Of a stretch of 64,000 bases of DNA, positions 1 through 27,567 are shown piece after piece; the stretch's first letter is position 1; each line of letters opens with the position of its first letter. The position numbers and the translations under genes are program-made. The notes under the pieces are model-generated. The model ran no database searches, was not told the origin of the DNA, and was given only the letters and a program-made list of their open reading frames with translations. Source of the stretch: Kitasatospora albolonga (lineage in GTDB: Bacteria > Actinomycetota > Actinomycetes > Streptomycetales > Streptomycetaceae); the NCBI GenBank assembly GCA_002082585.1, contig CP020563.1, positions 7,682,001 to 7,746,000 of the forward strand, read 5' to 3'.

Positions 1-2354
1 GGCGGTACGGGCTCCGGGGCGGTTGGTGCGGTTTCCGAGCCGGCCGGTGTGGTCTCCGGGGCGGTGGGTGCGGTCTCCCGGTCCGTCGGTACGGGCTCCG
101 GATCGGTCGTTACGGGCCCCGAGCCCGCCGCCCCGGTCTCCCGGTCCGTCGGTACGGGCTCCGGACCGGTCGTTACGGGCTCCGGGCCCGCCGCCCCGGC
201 CCCCGAGCCGCCCCGTACCGTCTCCGGCGCGGTGAGCGGGCCCACCGTCCGGTCCTCGCCGCTTCGGGCGGTGTGGTCCAGCAGTTCCAGCGGCTGCCCC
301 GCCCCGTCGAACAGGCGGGTCAGTTCCCGCTGGATCGCCGTCGCGGCGGCCCGGGCCGGGACCGTGGCGTCGCAGTGCACCCGGAGGGGCTCGCCCAGCG
401 GTTCGCGGCTGGTGCGCGGCTCTCCGGGACTGGTGGCCGCCGCTTCCTGAGAGGCGGAGGCCGGGGCCGGATCGTGCGGGGGGAGCCGGTCCAGGAAGGA
501 CCCGGCAGGGGGCAGGGCGACCGCTTCGCCCGCCTGGAGCTGCCGTACCGCCTCGGACAGGTCCTCCAGCAGCACTCTCCAGGACCGGGTGTCGGCGACC
601 AGTCCGTGCACCACGACCAGCAGGCCCGAGGGCCGGGGGCGGCGGTCGAGCACGGCGATCCGCAAGGGGCGTCCGCCGACGGGGTCCGTACCGGCGCGCA
701 TCCGGTCCACGGCCTTCCCCAGCAGCCGCGCTTCGTCCGCCGGGTCCCGGCCGGTGAGGTCCAGCACGCCGACCGGGACGGCACCGGCGATTCCGCCCCT
801 GCGCTGGGACCACCGGCCCTCGCTCTCCGCGAAGCGGAGGCGCAGCGCGTCGTGGTGCTGGAGCAGCCGCAGCACCGCTCTGCGGACGGCGGCGGGGTCG
901 AGGACGCCGGGTGCCACCAGCGGCAGGGCGCGGGCGTGGCCCTTCAACTCCTCGGTGTGCTGCCGGAGAAGGCGCTGCTGGACGGCGAGCAGCGGGCCGT
1001 CGGCCGGTGGCACCCCACCCGCCTCGGGCGCGCGGGACGCCGACGGCCCGACGGTGCGCAGGGCGAGCAGCGCGCGCCGGTCCACCCGGCCCGCGGTGCG
1101 CGGGATACGGGGCACCGGGACCCAGGTCGCGGGCAGCAGGGATTCCGGGAGCACCCCGGCGACGGCCCCGGGCAGCTCCTGTGCGGCCGTGCCGGGTGCG
1201 GGGACGTAGTAGGCCGTCATACGGGCGCCGAGCCTGCGCAGGTCGGCCGGGTCCGGGTAGCCGATCCTGGCGAGCATCCGCCTGACCCGCTCGGTGTCCA
1301 CCGGAACCCGTAACTCCTCGTCCGCCTCGGCCCGGTCGAGATGCCCGAGCCTGACCTCCCACCGCGTGGGCGCCTCGTAGTTGTGGTAGCCCCGCTCGGC
1401 GGCGTGCACATAGACGCCCACGTCGTTGATCATGCAGTTGGAGCTGCAGAAACCGGTGTCGGTCGGCTGCGCCCACAGGGACGAGCGCTGCCGCAGATAG
1501 GCGCGGATGCCCTCCTTGGTCACCTCCGAGTAGCGGAAGAAGTCCACGACGTCCACGGAGTCCACGGCGGCGCCGAGGTCACCGGACGCCTGGTGGTAGA
1601 CGCGGCGGCCGACCCGTAACTTCTCCTCGATCTCCGCCACGTCGTAGACGCCGTGCTCATGGAACCAGGACAGCCGCTCGTCCATGATCTGGCCCCGGGA
1701 GAGACCGGTGACGATGCTCGGGATGCCGCGCTCGTGCGCCAGCGTCGTGCTCAGGTCGAGCAGGGAGCGGAAGCAGCCGTTGCAGACGCTCTTGTGCTCC
1801 TGGAGCGAGCGGAGGAACACCGTGCGCTGGTCGGCCCGGGTGGCGGTGACGTGCTCGATGCCCAGCTCCGACGTGACGTCCTCGACGTTGCGCAGGGCCG
1901 TGCGGGAGATGAAGCCGTTGTCGAAGGTGAAGGTCATCACCCGCAGCCCCAGTTCCACCAGCCGGTACAGCACATAGGTGCTGTCCTTGCCGCCGCTGAA
2001 CAGCAGCAGGCAGTCGATGTCCGACCCGCGGGCCCGGGCCGCCCCGCGCAGCCGGGGAGCCAGCTCCTCCGGCTGCCGGAAGTACACCTGTATCTCCTCC
2101 CGGTGGGCGTCGAGACGGGCGCACAGCGAGCAGACGCCCCCGGTGTCGAAGGCCAGCCCGGGGAACGCGTCGCCGATGCCGCAGTTCACGCAGCGGAGCT
2201 CCGCCGGGGCCGGGCCGTCCGGGTCCTCGGCGCCGTGGAGCACCACCGCGCAGTCGGTGGCGTGCGGCTGCTGGCGTACGGCTTCCTCCACCTGCCGCGT
2301 GACCAGGCGGGCCCGGTCGGCGTCGAGGGCGCTGTCGCGTGTGTCGGAGCCCAT
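1..2354 (-). CDS. PP-loop nucleotide hydrolase/amidotransferase fused to NRPS fragments (partial)
   Basis: Starts with ATG at 2354, one base after the stop of the A-T gene, and stays open to the left edge (about 784 residues seen). Residues 55-78 hold a CxxC...CxxC zinc knuckle, residues 119-125 an FSGGKDS PP-loop, and later cysteine pairs lie at C191/C194 and C303/C307. The zinc knuckle plus PP-loop resembles N-acetyl-sugar amidotransferases (WbpG/PseA, amide to amidine); the CxxC arrangement also recalls TtuA/Ncs6 and CtaC-type sulfur transferases. Residues about 365-435 look like the C-terminal subdomain of an adenylation domain, with the A10 motif as AGRVDR (Lys replaced by Arg). Residues about 455-615 look like the N-lobe of an epimerization/condensation domain whose HHxxxDG reads HGLVADT. 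A Pro/Thr/Gly-rich repetitive tail follows. The exact reaction (amidine or thioamide formation) is inference. Confidence 0.75.
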   Translation of the reverse strand, partial: MGSDTRDSALDADRARLVTRQVEEAVRQQPHATDCAVVLHGAEDPDGPAPAELRCVNCGIGDAFPGLAFDTGGVCSLCARLDAHREEIQVYFRQPEELAPRLRGAARARGSDIDCLLLFSGGKDSTYVLYRLVELGLRVMTFTFDNGFISRTALRNVEDVTSELGIEHVTATRADQRTVFLRSLQEHKSVCNGCFRSLLDLSTTLAHERGIPSIVTGLSRGQIMDERLSWFHEHGVYDVAEIEEKLRVGRRVYHQASGDLGAAVDSVDVVDFFRYSEVTKEGIRAYLRQRSSLWAQPTDTGFCSSNCMINDVGVYVHAAERGYHNYEAPTRWEVRLGHLDRAEADEELRVPVDTERVRRMLARIGYPDPADLRRLGARMTAYYVPAPGTAAQELPGAVAGVLPESLLPATWVPVPRIPRTAGRVDRRALLALRTVGPSASRAPEAGGVPPADGPLLAVQQRLLRQHTEELKGHARALPLVAPGVLDPAAVRRAVLRLLQHHDALRLRFAESEGRWSQRRGGIAGAVPVGVLDLTGRDPADEARLLGKAVDRMRAGTDPVGGRPLRIAVLDRRPRPSGLLVVVHGLVADTRSWRVLLEDLSEAVRQLQAGEAVALPPAGSFLDRLPPHDPAPASASQEAAATSPGEPRTSREPLGEPLRVHCDATVPARAAATAIQRELTRLFDGAGQPLELLDHTARSGEDRTVGPLTAPETVRGGSGAGAAGPEPVTTGPEPVPTDRETGAAGSGPVTTDPEPVPTDRETAPTAPETTPAGSETAPTAPEPVP
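72..197. repeat. Two 63-bp tandem repeats inside the PP-loop/NRPS fusion gene
   Basis: Copies at 72-134 and 135-197 differ at only a few bases. The unit is 21 codons, so it keeps the minus-strand frame and encodes a Pro/Thr/Glu-rich tail (PEPVPTDRET and similar). Further degenerate copies continue to the window edge. This looks like an expanding flexible linker. Confidence 0.85.
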
Positions 2355-2355
2355 G

Positions 2356-4170
2356 TCAGTCCTTCAGCAGGTCGTCGGATGCGGTGTCGAGCAGTGCTTC
2401 CTCGACGACGCCGGCCAGCGCCTCGATGGTCGGGTTGCGCAGGAACGTCAGGAGCGGGAGTGAGACGCCGAACTCCTCCTCGATGCGGGAGAGCACGCTG
2501 ATGACGGCGAGGGAACCACCGCCCGACTGCTGGAAGGTGCGGCGCACATCGACGGCGGGGGCCGGGAGGACCGCGGACCAGATGTCGGCGACGGCCCGCT
2601 CGGTGGCGTTGCGCGGGCCGACGGTGTGCTCGTCCGGTGCCGCCGCCGGGGCGGGCGGCCGGAGCGCCGCCCGGTCGATCTTGCCGCTGATGGTGCGGGG
2701 GATGCCGTCCGTGGCCACGATCCCCACCGGGACGGCCGCCGCCGGGAGCCGCTCGGCCAGACGGGCGCGTACGGCGTCGGTGTCGACGCCCACGGCGGGC
2801 TCGACGAACGCGTGCAGCAGGGGCGGGCCGTCCCCCGGCTCGCCGAGCACCACCGCGGCCTCGGTGACACCGGGGCACTCGCGCAGGGCGCTCTCCACCT
2901 CCTCCAGCTCCACGCGGACCCCGCCGACCTTCACCTGGTGGTCCCTGCGCCCCAGGAACTCCAGGGCCCCGTCGGGCAGGAGCCGCCCGAAGTCCCCGGT
3001 GCGGTACAGGAGTCCGTCCGCGCCCTCCCGCAGCCGGTCGGGTACGAAGGCGCGTGCCGTGGCCTCCGGCTGCCGGTGGTACCTGAGGGCGAGGTGCGGG
3101 GTCCGCAGGTGGATCTCCCCGACGTGGCCGTCGGGGACCGGGGCGCCGCCCTCGTCGAGGAGCAGCACCTCGGTCTCCGGCAGGGGGCGTCCGACGGGGA
3201 CCGAGGCACGGTCGGTGTCGGACCGGGTGACGACGTGGAAGGTCTTCGTCATCGTCGCCTCCGTGGGTCCGTACAGGTTGAGCAGGGTGACGCGGTCCCC
3301 GAAGCGGTCGAACCAGCGGGCGGCGTCCGCCGGGGGCAGCCGCTCGCCGGAGAGCGCCACGCACCGCAGCGACGCGAAGCCGAGCCCGCCGGTGACGGCG
3401 GCCGTGAGCAGCGGCCGGAAGACGGAGGGCACGCAGTGGATCAGCGTGATCCGCTCCCGGTCGATCCACCGTGCCAGCGCGGACGGGTCGGAGCGGATGC
3501 CGGCCGGGGGCGCGCACAGGGTGCCGCCCACGCTCAGCGGGAGGAGGACATCGCGCAGTACGGCGTCGAAGCCGGGGGAGACGAGCTGGCCCACGCGCCA
3601 GTCGGGACCGGCGCCGAGCAGTCCGGCCTGCCAGCGGATGTAGTGGTCGAGGCTGCTGAGCCGCCCGAGTATGCCCTTGGGGCGGCCGGTGGAGCCGGAG
3701 GTGTGGAACAGGTGGCTGGGGTCGTCGGGCGCGGCGGTGCGGGCCGGGTAGCTGTCCCGGGCGGCGCTCTTGGCGGCGCCGAGGCCGACCCGTACGGTGT
3801 CCGGCGCGGCGTCGAGCGGCCCGTCAGCCCGGCGGTCGCCGTCGGCACCGACGAGGGCGTGGGTGGGCCGGGCGTCCGCGAGCACCGCCGCCAGCCGCAG
3901 GGGCGGCGCGGACAGGTCCAGCGGTGCCAGGACGGCACCGAGACGCAGTACGCCCACCATCGCGGCGGCGAGTTCCGCCCGGTCGTCGGTGAGCACCGCG
4001 ACGACCGAACCGGCCCCGGCGCCCGCCCGGTGCAGTGCGGCGGCGACACCGTCGGCCAGGCCGTCCAGTTCGGCGTAGCTGAGGCGGGAGTCCGGGGTCT
4101 CCACCGCGACGCGGTCGGGGAAGAGCTCGATCGTGCGCCCCACGATCGAGGGGATCGCTTCGAAAGCCAT
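2356..4170 (-). CDS. Stand-alone NRPS loading protein, adenylation-thiolation (A-T)
   Basis: 604 residues from ATG at 4170, with AGGA six bases upstream. An adenylation domain (about 1-500, [10 protein letters not shown] and LYGPTEAT motifs, A10 lysine in SGKIDR) is followed by a carrier domain with Ser in SGGGSL near residue 548. The specificity residues I read by alignment to GrsA (235/236/239/278/299/301/322/330/331) are D-A-R-H-A-S-L-M-T, which I cannot match to a substrate. Having no condensation domain, it most likely activates the starter unit and passes it to the N-terminal C domain of the 10261-16677 NRPS. It lies in the same minus-strand run as the PP-loop fusion and the asparagine-synthetase-like gene, so the carrier-bound starter could be the substrate of those enzymes (inference). 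Confidence 0.88.
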   Translation of the reverse strand: MAFEAIPSIVGRTIELFPDRVAVETPDSRLSYAELDGLADGVAAALHRAGAGAGSVVAVLTDDRAELAAAMVGVLRLGAVLAPLDLSAPPLRLAAVLADARPTHALVGADGDRRADGPLDAAPDTVRVGLGAAKSAARDSYPARTAAPDDPSHLFHTSGSTGRPKGILGRLSSLDHYIRWQAGLLGAGPDWRVGQLVSPGFDAVLRDVLLPLSVGGTLCAPPAGIRSDPSALARWIDRERITLIHCVPSVFRPLLTAAVTGGLGFASLRCVALSGERLPPADAARWFDRFGDRVTLLNLYGPTEATMTKTFHVVTRSDTDRASVPVGRPLPETEVLLLDEGGAPVPDGHVGEIHLRTPHLALRYHRQPEATARAFVPDRLREGADGLLYRTGDFGRLLPDGALEFLGRRDHQVKVGGVRVELEEVESALRECPGVTEAAVVLGEPGDGPPLLHAFVEPAVGVDTDAVRARLAERLPAAAVPVGIVATDGIPRTISGKIDRAALRPPAPAAAPDEHTVGPRNATERAVADIWSAVLPAPAVDVRRTFQQSGGGSLAVISVLSRIEEEFGVSLPLLTFLRNPTIEALAGVVEEALLDTASDDLLKD

Positions 4171-4223
4171 GGCTGGTCCTAGTCTGCGGGGGAGGGGGCG
4201 GGGGCGGGGGAGGGGGCCGGGGG

Positions 4224-6083
4224 TCACACGTGCCCGGGAAGGGAGAACGTGTCGAGGAGGATGCCGAAGGTGAGGACGACGAGCAGGAGGTCGTCGTCGA
4301 GGTGCGGGTGGAGGTCGAACCCGTCGCCCAGGTAGCGCGCTCTGAGGTGTTCCACCACGGCCGGGTCGAAGTAGCCCTGCCGGGCGATCCGCGCGGGTGA
4401 CAGCAGGTCGTTGACCCACTCGGTGTTCTGCCGGAGCAGGCCGGGGCTGCCCGGGGCGCGGAAGCCGTACTTCTCCCGGTGGGCGATCTCCGGCGGTACG
4501 AGCCCCTGGGCGGCCTGCCGGACGATCAGCTTCTCGCCCCCGGGACCGACCTTGAGCCGGGTGGGCACGGTGAGGGCGAAGTCGAGCACCCGGCGGTCGA
4601 GGAAGGGGTACCGGGCCTCCACCGAGTGCGCGAGGGCCATCCGGTCCCCGTGGTCGGTCAGCAGATGGTCGGAGAGCCGCAGGGTGAAGTCCAGGTAGGA
4701 GCGCTGGTGCAGCCGCGGCCTGCCGATGATCCGCGCCCTGTCCACCACCGGGTGCGCCAGACAGTCGAACTCGTGGTGCGCCGACCGGAGTCCGGGCGCG
4801 TACAGCTCGCGGACCCGGCCGCGCCAGGCGTGGTGGCGGCGCTCGTAGAACAGGTCGCGGTCGCCCCAGAGCCGGGCGCGCAGATCCTCCTCCAGGGCGT
4901 CGAGCAGCGGGTCCCCGGAACGGTCCCGTCCGCGTCCGCCCGCGTCGAACCGGTACCCGAGGTAGCCGCCGAACAGCTCGTCGGCGCCCTCACCGCTCAG
5001 GACCGCCTTGACGCCGTGGGCGCGGGCGAGCGCGGACAGCGCCATGGAGCAGGTGTTGTAGGTCTCCTTCACGGGGCACTCGCTGTGCGCGACCATGCGC
5101 TCCAGCCCGTCCATGAGGTCGCGTTCGGTGAAGGGCGCCTCGTGGTGCCGGGAGCCGATCTTCGCCGCCGCCAGGCGCTGGTACCGCGACTCGTCCACCG
5201 GGCTCCCGGGGAAGGTGACCGAGAAGGAGTGCGGACGCGGCGCCGACCTGGCCGCGAGCGCGCCGATCAGGGACGAGTCGAGCCCGCCGCTGAGGTAGAA
5301 GCCCACGTCGACATCGGCCTGCATCCGGCGGTGCACGGCGTCGGCGAGCAACTCCCGCAGGCGTTCGGCGTAGTACTGGTCCGGTTCGTGCTGTTCGTCG
5401 GTACGGGGGTAGTCCAGGTCCCAGTAGCGGCTCTCCCGGACGCCGTCCTCGTCCACCACCAGACAGCACCCGTTCCGCAGGCTGCTGACGCCCCGGAACA
5501 TCGTGCGCGGGCTGACCAGGCCGGGAAAGGTGAGGACCTGGTCGAGCCCGGTCAGATCCACCTCTCTCGGCACCCCGGGGTGGTGGAGCAGGGCCTTGAT
5601 CTCCGAGCCGAAGACGAGATGCCGGCCGGTGTCCGCGTAGTAGAGCGGGGCGATCCCGGCATGGTCGCGGGCGAGCAGGAGCCGACGCGCCCCCCGGTCG
5701 TGGATGGCGAGGGCGAACTGTCCGTTGACCCGGTCCAGCAGCCCCGCCCCCTCGTCCTCGTAGAGGTGGACCAGCACTTCCACATCGCAGGACGTACGGA
5801 AACGGTGTCCGCGCGACTCCAGTTCGGCGCGCAGTTCCCGGTGGTTGAAGATCTCCCCGTTGCACACCATGGCGACATCGCCGTCCTCGCTGTACATCGG
5901 CTGCGCGCCGCCGTCGAGGTCGACGATGCTCAGCCTGCGGAAACCCAGCGCCGCACCGTCGCGGATCACGCTGCCCGCCGCGTCGGGGCCCCGGTGCACC
6001 AGGGCCGCCGTCATACGGTCGAGCACCGCGGCGTCCGTGGCCGGTCCGTTCCCCAGGGCCATCGACCCGGCGATTCCGCACAT
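4224..6083 (-). CDS. Asparagine synthetase (glutamine-hydrolysing) family protein
   Basis: 619 residues, normal for AsnB. The start is fixed by the N-terminal MCGIAG, where Cys2 is the glutaminase nucleophile after Met removal. The class II glutaminase domain covers about 1-210, and an ATP-pyrophosphatase synthetase domain carries SGGLDSS near residue 264. Both active sites look intact. In primary metabolism the enzyme amidates aspartate; in peptide clusters relatives form amides or lactams on biosynthetic intermediates. It sits 53 bp upstream of the A-T gene and 15 bp after the TE-containing NRPS, in one minus-strand operon, so it is most likely a pathway enzyme that amidates a building block or the released acid. 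The substrate cannot be told from sequence. Confidence 0.9.
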   Translation of the reverse strand: MCGIAGSMALGNGPATDAAVLDRMTAALVHRGPDAAGSVIRDGAALGFRRLSIVDLDGGAQPMYSEDGDVAMVCNGEIFNHRELRAELESRGHRFRTSCDVEVLVHLYEDEGAGLLDRVNGQFALAIHDRGARRLLLARDHAGIAPLYYADTGRHLVFGSEIKALLHHPGVPREVDLTGLDQVLTFPGLVSPRTMFRGVSSLRNGCCLVVDEDGVRESRYWDLDYPRTDEQHEPDQYYAERLRELLADAVHRRMQADVDVGFYLSGGLDSSLIGALAARSAPRPHSFSVTFPGSPVDESRYQRLAAAKIGSRHHEAPFTERDLMDGLERMVAHSECPVKETYNTCSMALSALARAHGVKAVLSGEGADELFGGYLGYRFDAGGRGRDRSGDPLLDALEEDLRARLWGDRDLFYERRHHAWRGRVRELYAPGLRSAHHEFDCLAHPVVDRARIIGRPRLHQRSYLDFTLRLSDHLLTDHGDRMALAHSVEARYPFLDRRVLDFALTVPTRLKVGPGGEKLIVRQAAQGLVPPEIAHREKYGFRAPGSPGLLRQNTEWVNDLLSPARIARQGYFDPAVVEHLRARYLGDGFDLHPHLDDDLLLVVLTFGILLDTFSLPGHV

Positions 6084-6098
6084 CGGGGCTTCTCCTCT

Positions 6099-9000
6099 TC
6101 AGACGGCGGGTTCGAGGGGCAGGGAGCGCAGGGCGTCCCGCAGGGCGGGCCCGATCACGGCGAGCGCGTCGGGGCGCATCATGCGCAGATGCTCACCGGC
6201 CACCGGGACGGTCCGGATCTCCCCGGTGACGTACGGGCGCCACAGCTCCGCCGCCCCCGCGCCCCGGCCGTCGGGCGAGGACTCGAAGAGCAGCAGCGAA
6301 CCGTCGAACACCCCTGTCCCCGCGCCGGGTCCGTCGAGCAGACGCATCGTGTTCTCCGTGACGGCCAGCAGCGCGTCGATCAGCTCCCCCGCCAGCCCGG
6401 CGGGCGGGTCCCCGCCGTCGAAGGCCACGGCGCGCACGTCCGGCGGCGGTCCGGCGGCGGCCTCCCGGGGCCCGTCGGCGGGCCAGGCGTCGATGGCGGC
6501 CAGCAGCGCCACCTCGTGCCCCGCCTCACGCAGCCGTACGGCGACGGCGTGCGCGGCGGTGCCGCCGAAGGACCAGCCGGTCAGCAGGTACGGCCCCTTC
6601 GGCTGGCCGTCGGTGATGAGGGCGCAGTAGTCGGACACGAGCGCGTCGAAGCTCTCCGCGAGCCCGCCCCGCCCGTCGAGACCACGGGCCTGGACGGCGT
6701 ACACCGGATGCTCCGCCGGTACGTGGGGGAGCAGCCCGGTGTAGCTCCACCCCAGCCCGCTGCCGGGGTGGAGGCACCACAGCGGGCTGCCGCCGCCCCC
6801 GGCGCGCAGCCGTACCAGCGGGTCGAGCGGTCCGCGCGCACTCGGCTGCTCCCGCAGGAGTCCGGCCACCGTCGGCTCCAGGAAGACCTGCTGCATCGAT
6901 ACGTCGACACCGGCGGCCTGCCGGGCCGCGCCGATCAGCCGGGGCACCAGGAGGGAGTGGCCGCCCAGTTCGAAGAAGTTGTCCTCGACGCCGACCTCCC
7001 GCACCCCCAGCACCTCGGCGAAGACCCCGCACAGCGCCGTCTCGGCGGGAGTGCGCGGGGCGCGGCGGTGCCCGGCGGGCGGGGCGCCGGACTCCGGCAG
7101 CGGGAGCGCGGCCCGGTCGAGTTTGCCGTTGCCGGTGAGCGGCAGCCGGCCGACCGCCAGGACGGCGGAGGGCACCATGGCCGAGGGCAGGCGCCGGGCC
7201 AGGGACGTACGCAGACCGGCGAGGTCCAGTTCCTCGGGCGGGCCCTCCTCGGGGACGACGTACCCGATGATCCGGCGGTCGCCGGGGGCGGCCTCGTGCA
7301 CCAGCGCCGCACTCCGCGCGACCCGGGGGTGGGCCAGCAACGCGGCCTCGACCTCGCCGAGTTCGATCCGGTGCCCCCTGATCTTGACCTGGCCGTCCGC
7401 CCGCCCGGTGAACTCCAGCCCGCCCGTCGGCAGCAGCCGCACCAGATCGCCCGTCCGGTACATACGCGACCCGGCCGGCCCGTACGGGTCCGCCACGAAG
7501 CGCTCCGACGTCGGGCCGGGCCGCCCCAGATACCCGCGGGCGACCCCGGTGCCCGCGACGTACAGCTCACCCACCACCCCCCGGGGAACGGGACCGAGCG
7601 CGGAGTCCAGCACATACAGCCGGGCACCGGGACACGGCCCGCCGATCGGCACGGGCCCGGCGGGGACCGGCACCCCGAGGGGAAGCCGGGCCTCGGCGCA
7701 GTTGACGGTCGCCTCGGTCGGTCCGTAACTGTTGAAGATCACCGCGTCCGGGTGCCGCTCCCGCCAGCGCTCCATGGCCTCGCCCCGCAGGGGCTCCCCG
7801 CCGACGAGGAGGCACGCGGTGGGGGAGAGGTCGTACGGCAGTGACTCCAGCAGATCCAGATGGCTGGGGGTGATCTCCAGCAGCGCGGGGCGGGGCGTCC
7901 TGCTGTGGTCCGGGGCGGTCAGGTCGGTGAGGTGCAGACAGCCACCGCTGACCAGGGGGAGGTAGACGGCGGAGACGGTCAGGTCGAAGGAGACCGAGGA
8001 ATGGATCAGGCTGATGCCCGACACCCCCGGGTAGGTGACCCGGCCCCGGCGCAGATAGGCGCCGAGCGCACCGTGCTCCACGACGACCCCCTTGGGGCGG
8101 CCGGTGGAGCCGGAGGTGTGGATCACGTAGGCGGGGTGGCCGGGGAGCAGCGGCCGGACACGGTCGGCGTCGGTCAGGTTCGCGGCGTCCGGGTCGGGGT
8201 CGGTCATGGCTGTGGCTGTGGCTGTGGGGTCGGTGGCGGTCGGGACGGTGCCGTTCGGGGCGGTCGGGACCGCGCCAGTCGGGTCGGCTTGGGCCGTGTC
8301 AGGAGCGGTCGTTCGCGAAGTGGCTGTTCCCGGAGCGGCCGGGTCCGGTACGGCAGCGTCCGGTGAGGCCGGGGCCGTACCCGGGGCGCCGAGCCGGTGG
8401 AGGTCGGCCGGGGTGAGCAGGGGGACACCCGTCATGCCGATCCGCCCGGCGAGTCCGGCGTCCCCGATCAGCAGCCGGGGTGCGGCCTCCTCCAGCACCG
8501 AGGCGATCCGCGCGGGCGGCAGATCGGTGTCCACCGGGACGTAGGCGGCACCGGCCTTGAGCACCGCGAGCATCGCCGCGAAGGCGTCCACGGACCGTGG
8601 CAGCACGACGGCGACCAGATCCTCCGGCCCGACCCCCCGCCCGGCCAGCGCACGGGCCAGCCGGTTCGTCCGCCGGTTCAGCTCCCCGTAGTCCAGGGCC
8701 GTACTGCCCTCCACCACGGCGGGCGCGTCCGGCGTGCGGGCGGCCTGCTCCTCGAAGAGGCCGGGCATCATGGCGGCGCCGTCCCCCGGCGGCACCGGGG
8801 CGCCGGTACCCCAGGCGAGCAGCTCCGCCCGCTCGTCCGGCGTGAGCAGGGGGAGGCGGCTGATCCGCAGGTCGGGGTCGGCCGCCGCGGCCTCCAGCAG
8901 CCGGGTCCACCAGGTGACAAACCCGGCGGCGGCCGGGGCGTCGAACAGGTCGAGGGCGTAGTCCAGGCTGCCGTACAGGCCCGCCGGGGCGGACTCCGTG

Positions 9001-19405: not shown

Positions 19406-19407
19406 CC

Positions 19408-20034: not shown

Positions 20035-20981
20035 CCCCCGGCGCCGCCGCGGCCCTCGCCCTCCCCACCACCGGGAGCTGGGACTTCAGCGACTACCCCT
20101 ACGGCCTGGAACCGCTGACCCTCCCGCACCCGGGGGAGCCGTACGCCACCGGCGGATGCGTGGGGCCCGCCGATGTGACCCGGGTGTGCCAGGCCCTCCA
20201 CACCCGCGCGGACGAGGGGTTCGAGATCACCCGGCCCGCCGTCGGGCATACGCCGGAGCGGCTGTTCTGGTTCCGCTGGATCACCGGCCACCAGATCTCC
20301 TTCGTCATCTGGCGGCTGCTCGCCGACGCCCTGGCCCGGCTCTCCGCCGGAGAGGGCGACCGGGAGGAGCTGTCGGCGGAGATCACCCAGCACGTCCGCG
20401 GGTACTGCGGCATGCTGCTCTACACCGGTTCCTGCGACCGTGCCGTCTACAACGGCACCATCCGGCCGAGCATGTACCGCCTGCACAGTACCTTCACCGG
20501 CACCTGGGCCCCCGACTACCCGCCCGTACGCAGCCTGTTCCGGGGGCGGAAGGTGCCGCCCGTCGCGGCCTCGCAGGCGGACGCGCTGGTGCGGGAGGTG
20601 CGGCTCAGCAGCCAGATCCACCTCGGCGTGGCCTCGAAACTCGTCACCGGAGGGCGCTCCCTGCTCCAGCGGACCGTCGCCGAACGGGACACCGCCCAGC
20701 CACGCATGTGGGGCGCCGTCTTCGACTGCTACTTCCTGACCCTGCGCGCCCCGGTCTCCTCCTCCGAGGTCGCCTCCCAGCTCCTGCGCCGGCAGAAGGC
20801 CGTCGCCATGGACCTGGCCGCCAACGGCCTCTACCCCGCCGCAGGCGCCGACGAGATCCCCGAGGAACTGCGGCAGCCGGACGTCCTCGCCTGCGAGGAG
20901 GACCTGACCGACGCCCTCTTCCGGATCGCCCGCCTGGCCGCCGGACTGCCCCTCGACCGCGCCCGGGCGGCGGCCCGGTGA
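20031..20981 (+). CDS. Heme-dependent L-tyrosine 3-hydroxylase (LmbB2/Orf13-like)
   Basis: 316 residues from GTG at 20031, overlapping the previous stop by GTGA. It matches my knowledge of the LmbB2/SibU/HrmE-type tyrosine hydroxylase family in overall sequence (WFRWITGHQ, the YCGMLLYTG region and the HSTFTGTWAPDY segment). The enzyme makes L-DOPA from L-tyrosine with a heme cofactor, the first step to 4-alkyl-L-proline units. It ends in another GTGA overlap with the F420 reductase gene. No membrane segment or signal peptide is visible, so it is cytosolic. Confidence 0.83.
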   Translation: MTPGAAAALALPTTGSWDFSDYPYGLEPLTLPHPGEPYATGGCVGPADVTRVCQALHTRADEGFEITRPAVGHTPERLFWFRWITGHQISFVIWRLLADALARLSAGEGDREELSAEITQHVRGYCGMLLYTGSCDRAVYNGTIRPSMYRLHSTFTGTWAPDYPPVRSLFRGRKVPPVAASQADALVREVRLSSQIHLGVASKLVTGGRSLLQRTVAERDTAQPRMWGAVFDCYFLTLRAPVSSSEVASQLLRRQKAVAMDLAANGLYPAAGADEIPEELRQPDVLACEEDLTDALFRIARLAAGLPLDRARAAAR

Positions 20982-21880
20982 GCGGGCTGCGGCACGGCGT
21001 GGTCCTGCTGCCCGAGCACCCATGGGCCCGGGCCCGCGAACTCTGGTCCCGGGCCGAGGAGTTCGGCTTCGACCACGCGTGGACCTACGACCACCTCTCC
21101 TGGCGCACCCTGCGCGGCGGACCGTGGTTCGGGACGGTGCCCACCCTCACGGCGGCGGCGACGGCGACCTCCCGCATCCGCCTGGGCACCCTGGTGACCG
21201 GCCCGGCCTTCCGGCATCCGGTGACGTTCGCGAAGGAGCTGACGACGCTCGACGACATCTCGCGCGGCCGGATCGTCTGCGGGCTGGGCGCCGGAGCGGG
21301 CGGCCACGACGAGGAGGTGCTCGGCGCCAAGCCGCCGTCACCCGTACAACGCGCCGAACGGTTCGAGGAGTTCGTCGAGCTGACCGACCTGCTGCTGCGG
21401 TCCCCGGTGACGGACTACCCGGGCAGGTACTTCACCGCCGTCGACGCGCACACCGTTCCCGGGTGCGTGCAGCGGCCCCGCGTCCCGTTCGCCGTCGCCG
21501 CCACCGGCCCCCGGGGCCTGCGGCTGGCGGCCCGGTACGCCGACATCTGGGTGACGGCCGGACGGCCCGGCTGGGGCGAACCCGCCCGCTACGACCGTGC
21601 CGTCCCCCGCCTGGCCGGGCAGCTGCGTGCCCTGGAGGAGGCGTGCGCCGCCGCCGGACGCGACCCGGCCACGGTGCGCCGCCTGGTGGTGACCGGGGCC
21701 ATGATCCGCGGCGTCTCCGACTCGGCCTCCGCCTACCAGGACGCCTGCGGACTGTTCGAGGCCGCGGGCTTCACCGACGTCGTCAGCCACTGGCCGAGGG
21801 ACGGCTTCCCTTACCAGGGCCGGATCGAGGTCCTGGAGGACATCGCCCGCACCGTGCTCACCCCCGGAGGCGCCCCGTGA
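20978..21880 (+). CDS. Luciferase-like F420-dependent reductase (LmbY-like)
   Basis: 300 residues from GTG at 20978. It has the LLM-class pattern: HAWTYDHLSW, a TLTAAATATSRIRLGTLVT core strand-helix segment and GRIVCGLGAG. In the lincomycin and tomaymycin pathways the LmbY homologue uses reduced F420 to saturate a double bond of the alkylproline precursor. Its presence therefore argues for a propyl, propylidene or propenyl side chain rather than the fully unsaturated anthramycin type. Coupled by GTGA overlaps to both neighbours. Confidence 0.83.
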   Translation: MSGLRHGVVLLPEHPWARARELWSRAEEFGFDHAWTYDHLSWRTLRGGPWFGTVPTLTAAATATSRIRLGTLVTGPAFRHPVTFAKELTTLDDISRGRIVCGLGAGAGGHDEEVLGAKPPSPVQRAERFEEFVELTDLLLRSPVTDYPGRYFTAVDAHTVPGCVQRPRVPFAVAATGPRGLRLAARYADIWVTAGRPGWGEPARYDRAVPRLAGQLRALEEACAAAGRDPATVRRLVVTGAMIRGVSDSASAYQDACGLFEAAGFTDVVSHWPRDGFPYQGRIEVLEDIARTVLTPGGAP

Positions 21881-22743
21881 TCCGCTACGAGGTGGTCGAC
21901 ATGTTCACCGACCGCCCCTTCGCAGGCAGCACCCTGGCGGTCGTCCCGGACGCCGACGGCCTGTCCACCGAGGCCATGGGCGCGATCGCCGCCGAGCTCA
22001 ACGCCGCGGAGACGGCGTTCGTCCTCCCGGCCACGGCACCGGACGCCACCTACCGGGTCCGGGTGTTCACCCCCACCGCGGAATCCCCCGGAGGAGGCCA
22101 CTCCTGCGTCGGTACGGCGGCGACCCTCGTACGGACCGGTGCCGTACCGGCCGGGCGCGTCGTCCAGGAGTGCGGACCCGCCCGGCACGTCCTGACCGCA
22201 CAGGCCGACCGCGCGACGCTCACCCTCACCGGACCCGCTCCGGGCTCCGGCCTTGACCCGGCACCGCTGCTCGCGGCGGTCGGACTCGCCGCCGGGGACG
22301 CGTACGGCGGAAGCCCCCGCACCGAGGGCTTCGGAACCCCCTTCGCCTTCCTGCCGGTACGGGAGACGGCCCTCGCCCGCGCGGAGCCCGACCCGGCCCG
22401 GATGGCCGCCGCCGCACTCCCCGCCCTCTGCCTCCTCACCTGGGACGGCCCCCGGCGCACCGCCCGCACCCGCCTCTTCGCCCCCGGCTTCGGCATCACC
22501 GAGGACCCCGCGTGCGCCCCGGTGGCCGCCGCCCTCGGGCTGTGGCTGGCCCGGACCGGCCGGCTGCCCGCCGAACCGGGCAGCCACGCCTACACCCTCC
22601 GGCAGGGCGCCGAGGCGGGCAGGCCCGCCCTGCTGACGTGCACGCTCACCGTGCCGGACGGCTCCCCTCCGCACGCCGCCGTGACCGGCCGCGTGACGGC
22701 GGTCGCCCACGGCCGGATCACCACCCCGCACCCCGTCCGCTGA
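21877..22743 (+). CDS. PhzF-family isomerase (LmbX-like)
   Basis: 288 residues from GTG at 21877. PhzF/diaminopimelate-epimerase-type fold with an N-terminal EVVDMFTDRPFAGSTLAVV, a GGGHSCVGTA motif and a C-terminal GITEDPACAPVAAALG motif. In alkylproline pathways this enzyme shifts double bonds in the pyrroline intermediate after C-C cleavage. The Glu in NAAETAFVLP corresponds to the general acid/base position of PhzF. Last of the overlapping genes; 39 bp separate it from the gamma-glutamyltransferase-like gene. Confidence 0.83.
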   Translation: MIRYEVVDMFTDRPFAGSTLAVVPDADGLSTEAMGAIAAELNAAETAFVLPATAPDATYRVRVFTPTAESPGGGHSCVGTAATLVRTGAVPAGRVVQECGPARHVLTAQADRATLTLTGPAPGSGLDPAPLLAAVGLAAGDAYGGSPRTEGFGTPFAFLPVRETALARAEPDPARMAAAALPALCLLTWDGPRRTARTRLFAPGFGITEDPACAPVAAALGLWLARTGRLPAEPGSHAYTLRQGAEAGRPALLTCTLTVPDGSPPHAAVTGRVTAVAHGRITTPHPVR

Positions 22744-22782
22744 CTCTCCCGACTCCCCTGACTCCCCCGGGAAGGACCCCCT

Positions 22783-24576
22783 GTGCTGCTCCGCCCCGAA
22801 CTGCACGGCACACACGGCGCCGTCTCCTCCACCCACTGGCTCGCCTCGGCGGCGGGAATGGCGATGCTCGACCGGGGCGGCAACGCCTTCGACGCCGCGA
22901 CGGCCGCCGCCTTCGTCATCCAGGTCGTCGAACCCCACCTCAACGGCCCCGGCGGGGACGCCCCGATCCTCGTCCACGACGCGGCGGACGGCCGGGTGGA
23001 GGTCATCTGCGGACAGGGCCCGATGCCCGCCGCCGCCACCCTTGACGCCTTCCGGCAGCGCGGGCTGGACACCGTCCCCGGCTCGGGACTGCTGGCGGCG
23101 TGCGTGCCGGGCGCGTTCGGCGCGTGGATGACGCTTCTGCGCGACCGGGGGCGCCTCCGGGTCGAGGACGTACTCCTGCCCGCCATCGGGTACGCCGAGG
23201 ACGGGTATCCGCTGCTGCCCAGGGCCGCCGAGATGATCGGCGTGATGGCTCCGCTGTTCCGCGACGAGTGGACTGAGTCCGGCCGCACCTATCTGGACCA
23301 CGGCACCGCACCCGCCGCCGGGTCCCGGATGCGCAACCCCGCCCTGGGGCGGACGTTCCGGCGCATCCTCGCCGAGGCCCGGGCCGCCGGACCCGGCCGC
23401 GAGGCCCAGGCCGAGGCCGCGCGGGCGGCCTTCTACCAGGGGTTCGTCGCCGAGGCCGTGGACCGGTACCTGGCCACCGGTGAGGCCGTCGACGCCACGG
23501 GCCGCAGGAACGGCGGCCTGCTCACCGGGGAGGACCTGGCCGGGTGGCGGCCGCCCGTGGAGACACCCGCGTCGTTCGACTACCGGGGCCACCTGGTGCA
23601 CAAGGCCGGACCGTGGTCGCAGGGCCCGGTCTTCCTCCAGCAACTGGCGCTCCTGGAGGGCTTCGACCTGACGGCCATGGGGTACGGCAGCGCCGACCAT
23701 CTGCACACCGTCGTCGAGGCGGCGAAGCTCGCCTACGCCGACCGGGAAGCCTGGTACGGCGACCCGGCCCACGCCGACGTACCCCTGGCCGCCCTGCTCG
23801 ACCGGGACTACGCGGCGAAGCGCCGCGAGCTCATCGGGCCCGCCGCGTCCGGGGCGCTGCGTCCGGGATCGCCCGACGGCCGCCGCCCGTACGTCCCCGA
23901 ATGCCTCGACCGCTCCGGAGCGCCCACCGGCCCGGACTGGCTCTCCCAGCTGCACAACGGCATCCCCACCGTGCTGCTGCGGACCGCGGCCAAGGGGGAC
24001 ACCACCTGTGTCACCGCCACCGACCGGGAGGGCAACATGGTCGTCTCGACGCCCAGCGGCGGCTGGCTGAAAAGCTCCCCCGTGGTGCCGGGTCTCGGCT
24101 TCCCGCTCGGCACCCGGGGACAGATGGCCTGGCTGGCCGAGGGGCACCCCAACGTCCTCGCGCCCGGCAAGCGCCCGCGCACCACGCTCAGCCCCACCCT
24201 CGTACTGAAGGAGGGCCGCCCCTACCTCGCCTTCGGCACCCCGGGCGGGGACCAGCAGGACCAGTGGACGCTGCACTTCCTCCTCAACCACATCGACTTC
24301 GGCATGGCACCGCAGCGGGCCACGGAGGCGACCACGTTCCACACCGACCACGTCCCCACCTCGTTCACGCCACGCCAGTCGCGCCCGCTCACCCTGGTGG
24401 CCGAGCAGGGTTTCGACCGGGCCGTGCTGGAGGAGCTGGGCCACCGGGGCCACGAGGTCCGCGAGGTCCCGGCGCAGACCCTCGGCAAGGTGTGCGCGAC
24501 GGGCGTGGACGGCGACGGAGGCGTGGTCGCCGCGGCCAGTCCGCGCGGGGGCCAGGCGTACGCCGTCGTCCGGTGA
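22783..24576 (+). CDS. Gamma-glutamyltransferase homologue (LmbA-like C-C hydrolase)
   Basis: 597 residues from GTG at 22783. N-terminal-nucleophile fold of the GGT family; the predicted autoprocessing nucleophile is Thr407 in GDTTCVTATDREGN. The substrate-binding PSGGW loop and a GTPGGDQQ segment follow. LmbA homologues do not act on glutathione but cleave an oxalyl-type C-C bond of the ring-opened DOPA product. There is no signal peptide, unlike secreted GGTs, which fits an intracellular pathway role. It completes the six-enzyme cassette 18407-24576. Confidence 0.85.
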   Translation: MLLRPELHGTHGAVSSTHWLASAAGMAMLDRGGNAFDAATAAAFVIQVVEPHLNGPGGDAPILVHDAADGRVEVICGQGPMPAAATLDAFRQRGLDTVPGSGLLAACVPGAFGAWMTLLRDRGRLRVEDVLLPAIGYAEDGYPLLPRAAEMIGVMAPLFRDEWTESGRTYLDHGTAPAAGSRMRNPALGRTFRRILAEARAAGPGREAQAEAARAAFYQGFVAEAVDRYLATGEAVDATGRRNGGLLTGEDLAGWRPPVETPASFDYRGHLVHKAGPWSQGPVFLQQLALLEGFDLTAMGYGSADHLHTVVEAAKLAYADREAWYGDPAHADVPLAALLDRDYAAKRRELIGPAASGALRPGSPDGRRPYVPECLDRSGAPTGPDWLSQLHNGIPTVLLRTAAKGDTTCVTATDREGNMVVSTPSGGWLKSSPVVPGLGFPLGTRGQMAWLAEGHPNVLAPGKRPRTTLSPTLVLKEGRPYLAFGTPGGDQQDQWTLHFLLNHIDFGMAPQRATEATTFHTDHVPTSFTPRQSRPLTLVAEQGFDRAVLEELGHRGHEVREVPAQTLGKVCATGVDGDGGVVAAASPRGGQAYAVVR

Positions 24577-24678
24577 GCGGCGGAGGGGGTCGGCCCTCTG
24601 CACCCCGCCGCCCGTGCCCCCGTAACTCCGTACGCCGTATCCCCTACGAAGCGACAGACCACCGAAAGCAGGTAGACG

Positions 24679-25716
24679 ATGCGACTGCCCCCGGCACGCG
24701 GGCCCGTCAGCGACCGGCTGATCGGCACGCTGCCCACTCCGCCCTCCCGCGCCCACCCCGCCCCCGGCCCCCTGCCGGACCGGGACGCGAGCGGCGCGGC
24801 GGCCGACGAGGACCTGCAACTGGCGCTCCACGTCTGCTACGAGCTCCACTACCGGGGCTGGGAGGGCGTGCCCGATGAGTGGGAGTGGGACCCCGGGCTG
24901 CTGGCCTTCCGGGCGTCCCTGGAGCGGTGGTTCGAGGCGGACCTGCGTACCGGCGTCGCCGCACCCCTGCTCAACGGCGCGGACACCGGCCCCGGCACCA
25001 TCGGCATCGCCGAGGCGCTGAAGCGGCTCACCGAGCAGGAGTACGGGCCGCCCCTCGCCGCTCACCTGCAACGCGACGCCGACGCCGAGGAGTTCCGGGA
25101 GTTCGTCATCCACCGGTCGGTGTACCAGCTCAAGGAGGGCGACCCGCACGTCTGGGCCGTCCCCCGGATCGCCGGGCCCGCCAAGGCGGCCCTGGTGGAG
25201 ATCCTGGCCGACGAGTACGGCGGCGGCAGAGCGGAGCGCATGCACGCGGAGCTGTTCCGCCGGACCATGCGCGGACTGGGCCTGGCGGACACCTACGGCC
25301 ACTACCTCGCCCGCGTGCCCGCCGTCACCCTGGCCACCTCCAACGCCATCTCGCTGTTCGGGCTGCACCGTCGGCTCAGGGGCGCGCTCGTCGGCCACCT
25401 GGCGGCCTTCGAGATGACCTCGTCCCTGCCCAACCGCCGCTACGGCAACGGGCTCCGGCGGATCGGCGGCACCCCCGCCGACACCGACTTCTACGACGAG
25501 CACGTCACCGCGGACGCGGTGCACGAGCAGATCGCCGCCCACGACGTGTGCGGGGCCCTGGTACGGGCCGAGCCCGCGCTCACCGAGGACGTCCTGTTCG
25601 GTGCCGCCTGCGCGCTGGCCCTGGACGCGCGGATGGCCGAGCATCTGCTGGGCCATTGGCGGCAGGGCGTCTCCTCCCTGCTCACCGGGGGCCGGCCCCG
25701 TATGTCGGAGGTCTGA
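24679..25716 (+). CDS. Heme-oxygenase-like diiron oxidase (HDO family)
   Basis: 345 residues from ATG at 24679. Iron ligands of the HDO fold can be read in order: Glu179 (DEYGGGR), His189 (RMHAELF), Glu245 (AFEMTSS), His275, Asp279 and His282 (EHVTADAVH). Characterised HDOs oxidise amino-acid nitrogens or cleave C-C bonds: BelK/HrmI on lysine, the SznF middle domain on a guanidine, BesC, UndA. Because this cluster also encodes an amidinotransferase, N-oxygenation of a guanidine or amine is an attractive but unproven role. A 100-bp gap from the GGT-like gene could carry its own promoter. Confidence 0.8.
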   Translation: MRLPPARGPVSDRLIGTLPTPPSRAHPAPGPLPDRDASGAAADEDLQLALHVCYELHYRGWEGVPDEWEWDPGLLAFRASLERWFEADLRTGVAAPLLNGADTGPGTIGIAEALKRLTEQEYGPPLAAHLQRDADAEEFREFVIHRSVYQLKEGDPHVWAVPRIAGPAKAALVEILADEYGGGRAERMHAELFRRTMRGLGLADTYGHYLARVPAVTLATSNAISLFGLHRRLRGALVGHLAAFEMTSSLPNRRYGNGLRRIGGTPADTDFYDEHVTADAVHEQIAAHDVCGALVRAEPALTEDVLFGAACALALDARMAEHLLGHWRQGVSSLLTGGRPRMSEV

Positions 25717-25720
25717 GGCC

Positions 25721-26257
25721 ATGACGTGCCGGAGGTCCGAGGCCATGCCCCCGTTCCGCTCCCGCCCTACGACGCCTGCTGACGTCCCCTGCCGCAGTCC
25801 GGACCCTGGCCCGGGTCCGGGTCCGGGCCCTGCCCTCGACTCCGGCCCGAGCCTCGACCTGGCCCCTGGCCCCGACTCTGGCCCGAGCCCCGGCCTTGAC
25901 CCTGGCCCCGACCCCGGCCTTGACCCCGACTCCGGCCTCGACCCTGCTTCCGACCCCGCCCCCGACCCTGGCCCGAGCCCCGCCCCCGGCCCTGGCCCCG
26001 GCCCTGGCCCGAGCCTCGGCCCCGCGGAGGCCCTGCCCGCCGCCACCGTGACCGTCTACCCCGACGGGCCTCTGCTGGTGCGCGGTGACGCCGAGATCCG
26101 CCTGCCCGGCGGGGAGGTGCTCGCCGCACCGGGGCGTACGGTGGCGCTCTGCCGCTGCGGGCAGTCCGCCCTTCTCCCGTTCTGCGACGGGACACACAAG
26201 GCGGGTGGTTTCCGGGCCCCGACGCCGACGCCCCGGTCTCCGGCAGACCCCGCGTGA
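25721..26257 (+). CDS. CDGSH iron-sulfur protein with Pro/Gly/Asp-rich N-terminal region
   Basis: 178 residues if started at ATG 25721, 170 from ATG 25745; both ATGs follow an identical GGAGGTCYGAGGCC, so a 24-bp unit carrying the ribosome site and start has been duplicated. The C-terminal 75 residues hold a single CDGSH motif, CRCGQSALLPFCDGTHK, whose three Cys and one His bind a [2Fe-2S] cluster. About 80 residues before it are low-complexity P/G/D/S repeats. It starts five bases after the HDO stop. A role as electron donor to the diiron oxidase is inference from this coupling. Confidence 0.8.
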   Translation: MTCRRSEAMPPFRSRPTTPADVPCRSPDPGPGPGPGPALDSGPSLDLAPGPDSGPSPGLDPGPDPGLDPDSGLDPASDPAPDPGPSPAPGPGPGPGPSLGPAEALPAATVTVYPDGPLLVRGDAEIRLPGGEVLAAPGRTVALCRCGQSALLPFCDGTHKAGGFRAPTPTPRSPADPA

Positions 26258-26286
26258 ACCTCCGCCGCTGTGCGAGGATTGCCCGC

Positions 26287-27567
26287 ATGACGTTGCTGCC
26301 AGGGCGTCGCGAGACGCGTCAACCAAGCCGTCTGGGACGGAAGTTCACGTTACTGTGGTCGGCGTCGTGGGTGTCCTCCGTCGGTGACGGGATGCGGGAG
26401 GCGGCCCTTCCCCTCCTCGCGGTCTCGGTCTCCGCCTCACCCAGCGCCGTCGCGGTGGTCGCAGCCGCCGGAACTCTCCCGTGGCTGCTGGTGTCGCCCT
26501 TCAGCGGAGCCCTCGCGGACCGGCTCAACCCCCGGTGGCTGATGATGTCCACCGACACGCTGCGGGCGGTGGTGGTGGCCGGGTTCGCCGCGTGGACGCT
26601 CGTCGGAAGCCCCCCGCTCCTCGCCCTCGCACTGGTCGCGTTCGCGCTCGGCTGCGGTGAGACCCTCTTCGACAACGCGGCGATGTCGATGATGCGGGAC
26701 GTGGTCCCCGCCGACCGGCTCGACCTCGCCAACGGCCGTCTCCAGGGCAGCCAGATCGTGGGCGGCCACTTCGTGGGACCGCTGCTCGGTTCGGCGCTGT
26801 TCGCGGTGGCCGCCGGACTGCCCTTTGTCGTGGACGGGCTCACCTTCGTCCTCGCCGCGGTGCTCCTCGCCGCCATGGGCCGCTCCGGCCGCCCGGCGCC
26901 CGCGGAGGGCAGGCAGCCGATACTGACCGAGATCGGGGACGGCGCCCGCTGGCTCTGGAACCACCGGGGGCTCCGTCTGCTCGCCGTGGTCTGCACGGTC
27001 GCCACCCTGGCCTTCTACCTCGGTGTGACGCTGCTCGTCCTGCTGGTCACCCGGCATCTGGATGCGCCCCCGCTCCTGTACGGCGTGGTGCTCGCGGCCG
27101 GTGCCGTCGGCGGTCTCCTGGCCGGTTTCGGAGCCGGGCGGATCAGCGCCCGGCTGGGGCTGCGTTCCTGTATCGGCCTGGCCCTGGGCTCCATGGCGGT
27201 GGCGCTGTTCGTGATGGGCCTGAGCACCTCGGTGGTCCTGGTGGCGGCGATGTACGCGGTCGCCAGCTTCGGTGTTGTCACCTGGAACGTGCAGGTGGTG
27301 ACGCTCCGGCAACGGGTCGTGCCCCGGGAGCTCTTCGGCCGCGTCAACAGCAGCTATCTGCTGGTCAGCCGACTGGGCATGCTGGTCGGGGTCACCCTCG
27401 CCGGATGGATCGGGACCGCCCTCGACGTCCGGGCCCCCCTCTTCCTCGGCGGCGCCCTCCTGCTGCTCAGCCTCGCCGCCGTTCCCCGTCTGGCCGGTCT
27501 CGAACCGGCCCCGCCCTCACCGGACGGCACGCCCGGCGACCGCTCCCGGGAGAAGACCGGCCACTGA
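26287..27567 (+). CDS. MFS exporter (MFS_3/EntS type)
   Basis: 426 residues from ATG 26287 (an in-frame GTG at 26254 is possible). About ten to twelve hydrophobic helices, with the loop FSGALADRLNPR after helix 2, mark the major facilitator superfamily; FDNAAMSMMRDVVPADRLDLANGR is typical of the EntS-like subgroup. It is the last plus-strand gene of the cluster and the only transporter in it within this window, so it probably exports the peptide and gives self-protection. It converges with the gnd pseudogene. Confidence 0.88.
   Translation: MTLLPGRRETRQPSRLGRKFTLLWSASWVSSVGDGMREAALPLLAVSVSASPSAVAVVAAAGTLPWLLVSPFSGALADRLNPRWLMMSTDTLRAVVVAGFAAWTLVGSPPLLALALVAFALGCGETLFDNAAMSMMRDVVPADRLDLANGRLQGSQIVGGHFVGPLLGSALFAVAAGLPFVVDGLTFVLAAVLLAAMGRSGRPAPAEGRQPILTEIGDGARWLWNHRGLRLLAVVCTVATLAFYLGVTLLVLLVTRHLDAPPLLYGVVLAAGAVGGLLAGFGAGRISARLGLRSCIGLALGSMAVALFVMGLSTSVVLVAAMYAVASFGVVTWNVQVVTLRQRVVPRELFGRVNSSYLLVSRLGMLVGVTLAGWIGTALDVRAPLFLGGALLLLSLAAVPRLAGLEPAPPSPDGTPGDRSREKTGH

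What the first reader, a model, noticed from the sequence alone, without database searches (positions are those of the whole stretch)
1..27567. Peptide cluster joining a 4-alkylproline cassette to amidino and amido transfer chemistry
One contiguous locus carries a full L-tyrosine-to-4-alkyl-L-proline pathway, four adenylation domains with a terminal TE, an arginine amidinotransferase, an asparagine-synthetase-like enzyme, a PP-loop amidotransferase/thiolase-like fusion and a diiron N-oxygenase-type enzyme. Known alkylproline products (lincosamides, pyrrolobenzodiazepines, hormaomycin) do not use this set as far as I know. It lacks the reductase release and anthranilate genes of pyrrolobenzodiazepines and the sugar genes of lincomycin. 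A new tetrapeptide-like metabolite is likely.
Basis: partly seen in the sequence, partly recalled or inferred. Interest (0 to 1): 0.9.

Follow-up and report, generated by a model that had tools for sequence, protein, structure and literature searches.

The report
Alkylproline peptide cluster, probable sulfur module
A Streptomyces gene cluster joins a tyrosine-to-4-alkylproline pathway to a peptide assembly line carrying a detachable set of enzymes that probably replaces an oxygen of an aspartate-derived unit by sulfur, a chemistry hardly known in such peptides.

Summary
The observation largely holds. The cluster runs from the MFS gene (ends at 27567) past the window's left edge to about -2206 (Asp racemase, acyl-CoA dehydrogenase). 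Five genomes, this one included, carry it in the same order (one over three contigs); no characterised match was found. Corrections: the diiron oxygenase/CDGSH pair is an optional extra, shared only with the closest relative. The "PP-loop amidotransferase/thiolase fusion" is a PP-loop ATPase inserted into the C-terminal subdomain of an adenylation domain, followed by a truncated condensation domain. It has Fe-S-type cysteines in the TtcA/TtuA arrangement reported for CtaC, the closthioamide thioamide synthetase; three annotated sugar amidotransferases lack that set. With an AsnB-like enzyme, an A-PCP protein of near-fixed code (DxRH in 18 of 18 aligned) and, in most actinobacterial loci, an aspartate racemase it forms a recurrent quartet. 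Three further genomes have the alkylproline NRPS core without it. Best reading: a peptide with tyrosine-derived 4-alkylproline (module 2) and a PCP-bound Asp-derived unit that is amidated, then converted by sulfur insertion. Sulfur versus nitrogen chemistry, the carboxylate used and the product remain inferred.

The parts
1..2354 (-). PP-loop (AANH) protein, 887 aa, continues to window -309: split A-domain C-terminal subdomain (about residues 12-45 and 370-433) with inserted Fe-S-type PP-loop domain (50-369), then truncated condensation domain (454-621)
2356..4170 (-). A-PCP protein of the quartet; pocket code DARHASLMT(K)
4224..6083 (-). asparagine-synthetase-like glutamine-dependent amidotransferase
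6099..10172 (-). NRPS C-A3-PCP-TE
10261..16677 (-). NRPS C(EntF/MxcG-like)-A1-PCP-C-A2-PCP; A2 code DVWC(L/I)QLLV constant in 8 core NRPSs, proposed 4-alkylproline module
16831..18006 (-). arginine amidinotransferase (AGAT/SxtG/HsvA type)
18407..19405 (+). SAM methyltransferase, proposed LmbW/Apd3-like (start codon uncertain)
19543..20034 (+). L-DOPA 2,3-dioxygenase (LmbB1/Apd1-like)
20031..20981 (+). heme-dependent L-tyrosine 3-hydroxylase (LmbB2/Apd2-like)
20978..21880 (+). luciferase-like (F420-type) reductase, proposed LmbY/Apd6-like
21877..22743 (+). PhzF-family isomerase (LmbX/Apd5-like)
22783..24576 (+). gamma-glutamyltransferase homologue (LmbA/Apd4-like)
24679..25716 (+). haem-oxygenase-like diiron enzyme; optional extra, shared with 1 of 7 other core clusters
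25601..26257 (+). frame of a CDGSH iron-sulfur protein (98 aa in the closest relative, so the true start is further right); optional extra
26371..27567 (+). MFS exporter, right end of the conserved cluster

Best explanation
A nonribosomal peptide cluster. Shown by sequence: a tyrosine-to-4-alkylproline cassette, a tri-modular NRPS with TE, an amidinotransferase, an exporter, and a detachable 'quartet' (Asp racemase, AsnB-like amidotransferase, A-PCP, PP-loop protein) plus an acyl-CoA dehydrogenase. Inferred: the racemase supplies D-Asp; the A-PCP protein loads it, probably through the side-chain carboxylate; the AsnB-like enzyme turns the free carboxylate of the PCP-bound residue into a carboxamide; the Fe-S PP-loop protein, docked by its vestigial A-subdomain/C-domain parts, adenylates that amide and replaces O by S (thioamide), as CtaC does on PCP-bound substrates. 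The EntF-like first C domain passes this unit to residue 1 (A1), A2 adds 4-alkylproline, A3 the last residue, and TE releases. The amidinotransferase adds a guanidine to a building block or to the product. The HDO/CDGSH pair may add a further oxidation in this lineage.
Confidence: 0.5

Rival explanations
1. The PP-loop protein is an amidating enzyme: ammonia released by the AsnB-like glutaminase converts a PCP-bound amide to an amidine, as WbuX-type enzymes do on sugars. The product is an amidine peptide.
Against: Score far below the WbuX cut-off; no HisH/HisF2 partners beside it, unlike the sugar enzymes in L043 and L046; Fe-S-type cysteines of sulfur-inserting enzymes are conserved, and three sugar enzymes lack the set.
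Confidence: 0.2
2. The PP-loop protein converts the AsnB-made amide into a nitrile, or does another AMP-forming step; or the AsnB enzyme only makes Asn.
Against: Conserved Fe-S-type cysteines; lasting pairing of AsnS with the A-PCP and PP-loop genes would be odd for plain Asn supply.
Confidence: 0.2
3. Two neighbouring clusters: an alkylproline NRPS cluster and an unrelated quartet that happen to lie side by side.
For: The core occurs without the quartet in 3 relatives, and the quartet without alkylproline genes in the fetched flanks of the other actinobacterial loci.
Against: Same juncture and order in the window's genome, Embleya scabrispora, G020 and NRRL WC-3742, with identities down to about 58%; Streptomyces sp. 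13-12-16 fits, though on three contigs.
Confidence: 0.1

Closest known systems
Alkylproline (APD) clusters: lincomycin, hormaomycin, anthramycin and other pyrrolobenzodiazepines
   Same: Tyrosine hydroxylase, DOPA dioxygenase, gamma-GT, PhzF, luciferase-like reductase and methyltransferase set (PMC4780272 passages, PMC5519988 passages)
   Different: Tri-modular NRPS ending in TE, amidinotransferase, and an Asp racemase/AsnB/A-PCP/PP-loop quartet
Closthioamide CtaC (AANH thioamide synthetase)
   Same: PP-loop plus three-cysteine Fe-S motif, works beside carrier proteins (PMC6772006, text parts 1 and 2 of 3 read)
   Different: Here the domain is inserted in an adenylation-domain subdomain, followed by a truncated C domain, and paired with AsnB-like and racemase genes; closthioamide uses an NRPS-independent thiotemplated pathway
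N-acetyl sugar amidotransferases (WbuX/WbpG family)
   Same: Best overall fold and profile match, N-terminal zinc-finger cysteines
   Different: No HisH/HisF2 partners, Fe-S-type cysteines present, thiotemplated context
Interrupted adenylation domains (methyltransferase insertions; recalled)
   Same: A tailoring domain inserted between A8 and A10 of the A-domain C-terminal subdomain
   Different: The insert is a PP-loop ATPase; in actinobacteria the piece has split off as its own gene
Microcystin McyF/McyB iso-aspartate system (codes recalled)
   Same: Asp racemase (McyF is among the structure matches) with a DARH-type A domain
   Different: No PP-loop or AsnB partner recalled there

Membership tests
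Alkylproline (APD) biosynthetic cluster | Tyrosine hydroxylase LmbB2-type and DOPA dioxygenase LmbB1-type | tested here: met
   7kqr E 9.5e-83; 6on1 E 4.2e-55
Alkylproline (APD) biosynthetic cluster | gamma-GT, PhzF, luciferase-like F420 reductase and methyltransferase homologues in one cassette | tested here: met
   Families and order; direct comparison with the Lmb/Hrm proteins was not possible
Alkylproline (APD) biosynthetic cluster | A domain that loads the alkylproline | tested here: inconclusive
   A2 code DVWC(L/I)QLLV in 8 core NRPSs; G256, with a different NRPS, has DVMTVQCMA. A2 keeps V236 and V331 of the modular Pro pattern VQ(Y/F)IAHVV (PMC3874040); assignment inferred
Pyrrolobenzodiazepine cluster | Reductase release domain | tested here: not met
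   Terminal domain is TE
CtaC-type NRP thioamide synthetase | PP-loop motif plus three Fe-S cysteines in the TtcA/CtaC arrangement | tested here: met
   C191, C194, C307 invariant in 22 aligned sequences; spacing compared with published CtaC numbers only, not with its sequence; Fe-S binding itself not tested
CtaC-type NRP thioamide synthetase | Carrier-protein context | tested here: met
   A-PCP gene adjacent; same-chain A-PP-loop-PCP in L028 and L043, with flaws in L027 and L051
CtaC-type NRP thioamide synthetase | Sulfur insertion activity | not testable with these tools
   Needs biochemistry
N-acetyl sugar amidotransferase (WbuX) | Score above the family cut-off | tested here: not met
   90 against 203.2 bits
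N-acetyl sugar amidotransferase (WbuX) | HisH/HisF2 partner genes | tested here: not met
   None among the genes from -2206 to 27567 (Pfam; amidinotransferase, tyrosine hydroxylase)
Interrupted adenylation domain | Foreign domain inside the A-domain C-terminal subdomain | tested here: met
   Model residues 12..433 align to A-subdomains of 3vnr and 5n9x around the PP-loop; A core, PP-loop, A-subdomain end and PCP in one chain in L028 and L043
AGAT-type amidinotransferase | Homology to AGAT/SxtG with the catalytic Cys region | tested here: met
   E 5.4e-128; GSFHCATLDV shared with SxtG and HsvA; that this Cys is the catalytic one is recalled
Aspartate racemase | Two catalytic cysteine motifs | tested here: met
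   PCNTAH and CTELP kept against 3s7z and, for both cysteines, 1jfl

The most novel reading that the evidence does not exclude
A previously undescribed NRPS tailoring module: an adenylation domain interrupted by an Fe-S PP-loop thioamide synthetase (split off as its own gene in actinobacteria), working with an Asp racemase and an AsnB-like enzyme on side-chain-loaded D-Asp, so that a free carboxylate becomes an amide and then a thioamide on the carrier protein. In this family it is plugged into an alkylproline peptide assembly line, giving the first thioamidated alkylproline peptides.
Probability: 0.35. Interest if true: 0.85.

Novelty: new variant of a known kind. Interest (0 to 1): 0.7.

Why it matters
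Thioamides in nonribosomal peptides were called exceedingly rare, with closthioamide the only bacterial case known in 2019 (PMC6772006). A recurrent quartet in actinobacteria with a defined carrier protein, a near-fixed A-domain code and natural with/without pairs makes the amide-to-thioamide logic testable in tractable Streptomyces, and points to a kind of domain insertion in NRPS adenylation domains that I did not find described. It also widens the set of alkylproline clusters beyond lincosamides, PBDs and hormaomycin.

Tried and rejected
Amidine as first idea: I first read the PP-loop domain as WbuX-like amidine chemistry and moved to sulfur insertion after the cysteine comparison. Finding CtaC itself in the family of L027's genome: 11 genomes searched, 5 with a match; no candidate that the scripts extracted fitted CtaC's published residue numbers, and L053 and L054 were not extracted. 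Confirming the DARH/DPRH codes in print: nothing. Assigning the guanidino residue to A1 or A3: A3 turns hydrophobic in G031, whose fetched stretch lacks the amidinotransferase, but WC-3742 has Lys at that pocket position despite having it, so left open. An A-domain pocket query to the PDB and a plasmid search did not settle the specificity. Papers: searches gave none or one; others gave listings in which no title or abstract start describes this locus (CC-licensed PMC texts only; searches timed out). Of two Embleya papers I saw only term searches: PMC5813959 and PMC13152386 hold none of the words alkylproline, lincomycin, hormaomycin or thioamide. MIBiG was not available.
Full report
Check of the observation. 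The window is G000:C1:7682001-7746000 of an 8.03 Mb single-contig genome. Taking the left flank and re-calling genes with a codon model trained on the clear genes gives, on the minus strand: amidinotransferase 16831-18006; NRPS C-A-PCP-C-A-PCP 10261-16677; NRPS C-A-PCP-TE 6099-10172; AsnB-like 4224-6083; A-PCP 2356-4170; PP-loop protein -309..2354; Asp/Glu racemase -1055..-306; acyl-CoA dehydrogenase -2206..-1052. On the plus strand: methyltransferase, DOPA dioxygenase, tyrosine hydroxylase, luciferase-like reductase, PhzF, gamma-GT, HDO, CDGSH, MFS. The tyrosine hydroxylase matches the solved enzyme 7kqr at E 9.5e-83, the dioxygenase 6on1 at 4.2e-55, and the amidinotransferase SxtG at 5.4e-128.

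The locus is one unit. A scan of named genomes with the PP-loop protein gave 19 loci. Extending two of them showed the same order in Embleya scabrispora DSM 41855 and Streptomyces sp. NRRL WC-3742: MFS, gamma-GT, PhzF, reductase, tyrosine hydroxylase, dioxygenase, methyltransferase, amidinotransferase, two NRPS genes, AsnB-like, A-PCP, PP-loop, then racemase and acyl-CoA dehydrogenase. An unnamed family member, G020, repeats it. WC-3742 has two extra genes between MFS and gamma-GT. Streptomyces sp. 13-12-16, the closest relative, has all these genes on three contigs: A-PCP to dehydrogenase (L012), AsnB-like and NRPS genes (G003:C912), and NRPS end to MFS (G003:C102). That makes five genomes with core plus quartet.

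The HDO/CDGSH pair. It lies between gamma-GT and MFS in the window and, at 89 and 91% identity, in Streptomyces sp. 13-12-16. tblastn finds neither gene in the fetched stretches of Embleya, WC-3742, G020, G376, G369 and G031 (the G369 stretch stops about 1 kb before its contig end and shows no MFS either). HDO homologues occur in 79 of 101 genomes of the genus searched, two of them in this genome, and Embleya has an HDO/CDGSH pair elsewhere. So the pair is an optional extra of this lineage. Whether it acts on the product cannot be told from sequence.

Sulfur or nitrogen. Twenty of 20 aligned homologues keep SGGKDS, four zinc-finger-type cysteines and C191, C194, C303, C307. With two plasmid-borne homologues added, C191, C194 and C307 are invariant in 22; Roseovarius lacks C303. 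Three annotated N-acetyl sugar amidotransferases, taken as comparators (two beside HisH/HisF-type genes; the third beside an asnB gene), lack the set; one has a single Cys at one of the four columns. In PMC6772006 (text parts 1 and 2 of 3 read) CtaC is an Fe-S AANH enzyme that installs thioamides on carrier-bound peptides, loses activity or has it lowered when D77, S78, C154, C157 or C284 are changed, and has relatives near NRPS genes, the majority in anaerobes. I therefore prefer thioamide chemistry, while the best fold match still pulls toward amidine.

The quartet. An AsnB-like gene lies in the same locus as the PP-loop gene in 18 of 19 loci; in the nineteenth, L012, the contig ends first, and the gene is on a second contig. 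In L029 the relative is only 33% identical. Of the 18 quartet A domains aligned, 16 of 16 actinobacterial ones begin DARH and end MT, Massilia has DARHCALMV and L028 DPRHMALLA; the window's other three A domains begin DALH, DVW- and DLSE. L027 (split frames) was not in that alignment. The racemase was found in 14 of 21 loci examined; misses are L020, L024 and L025 (the last two on 7 kb contigs), L028, L029, L030 and L043, so outside actinobacteria only L027 has it. Its best structure matches are aspartate racemases (3s7z, 1jfl). From memory, DARH/DPRH codes belong to A domains that load acidic residues through the side-chain carboxylate (McyB, McyE, ACV synthetase); two searches did not find these strings, so this is a lead only. 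Elsewhere the quartet stands with P450, reductase, FAD and acyltransferase genes or with genes annotated as for beta-tyrosine chemistry on a Streptomyces plasmid.

Natural with/without pairs. Of 394 genomes of the family, this one included, 7 have a close PP-loop relative and 25 a close tyrosine hydroxylase. I opened five of the hydroxylase loci whose genomes are not among the 7. G376 and G369 have the core at about 76-93% identity (the lowest value is a tblastn hit to the over-long methyltransferase frame) with no AsnB-like, racemase or dehydrogenase match; their only matches to the PP-loop and A-PCP proteins are at 32-34%, the level of general NRPS domains. G031 has the core with neither quartet nor amidinotransferase in 35 kb. 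G256 and G344 have different NRPS genes. The quartet is therefore an add-on. The A2 code is DVWC(L/I)QLLV in the 8 core NRPSs read, including G031; A1 and A3 vary (A3 of G369 was not readable; G256 differs at A2 too). A2 is thus the best candidate for the alkylproline; it keeps V236 and V331 of the modular proline pattern VQ(Y/F)IAHVV quoted in PMC3874040 (passages). The first C domain is EntF/MxcG-like, as expected for taking a unit from a separate carrier protein; what it accepts in quartet-less relatives is unknown.

Verdict. The locus is real and orthologous in several genomes, and as far as I could search it is uncharacterised (paper searches; term searches in two Embleya papers). The new point is the add-on quartet with an interrupted A domain carrying a CtaC-like enzyme. 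Product structure, regiochemistry and the position of the guanidine are not settled.

Noticed in passing
window 24679-26257: HDO plus CDGSH pair between gamma-GT and MFS, shared with Streptomyces sp. 13-12-16 but not found in six other core clusters; HDO homologues are widespread in the genus (79 of 101 genomes), and an HDO/CDGSH pair stands apart from the cluster in Embleya (L041).
   Followed up: partly
L009:13668-15670 (window about -4332..-2330): DyP peroxidase next to an encapsulin shell gene, directly left of the cluster.
   Followed up: no
L042:1-40933 (Streptomyces sp. NBC_01216 plasmid): Quartet beside genes annotated as tyrosine 2,3-aminomutase, 4-hydroxyphenylacetate 3-hydroxylase, SgcJ family protein and a free condensation enzyme: another apparently uncharacterised product type.
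   Followed up: partly
L015, L016, L017, L020, L026: A second group of quartet-like clusters (no racemase found in L020); in L017 the NRPS ends in a reductase, with a fatty acid desaturase and ABC exporter nearby, suggesting aldehyde or alcohol release.
   Followed up: partly
L043:17421-25469 and L044: Two roseobacter plasmids share the interrupted-A NRPS region; many flanking genes bear identical protein accessions, although the plasmids are typed differently.
   Followed up: no
L051: B12-binding domain fused to an A domain interrupted by a PP-loop with a degenerate motif (SGGRGA).
   Followed up: partly
L047:7707-8855: PP-loop protein with the four Fe-S-type cysteines beside acyl carrier protein and ketosynthase genes on a Streptomyces plasmid: possible thiotemplated sulfur enzyme outside NRPS.
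   Followed up: no
L074:673-879, G376:C1:722882-723088, G369:C12:553229-553435: A 68-aa MbtH-like gene (by eye) lies between NRPS and amidinotransferase in these relatives; tblastn found no counterpart in window coordinates -35999..64000, so it seems lost here.
   Followed up: partly
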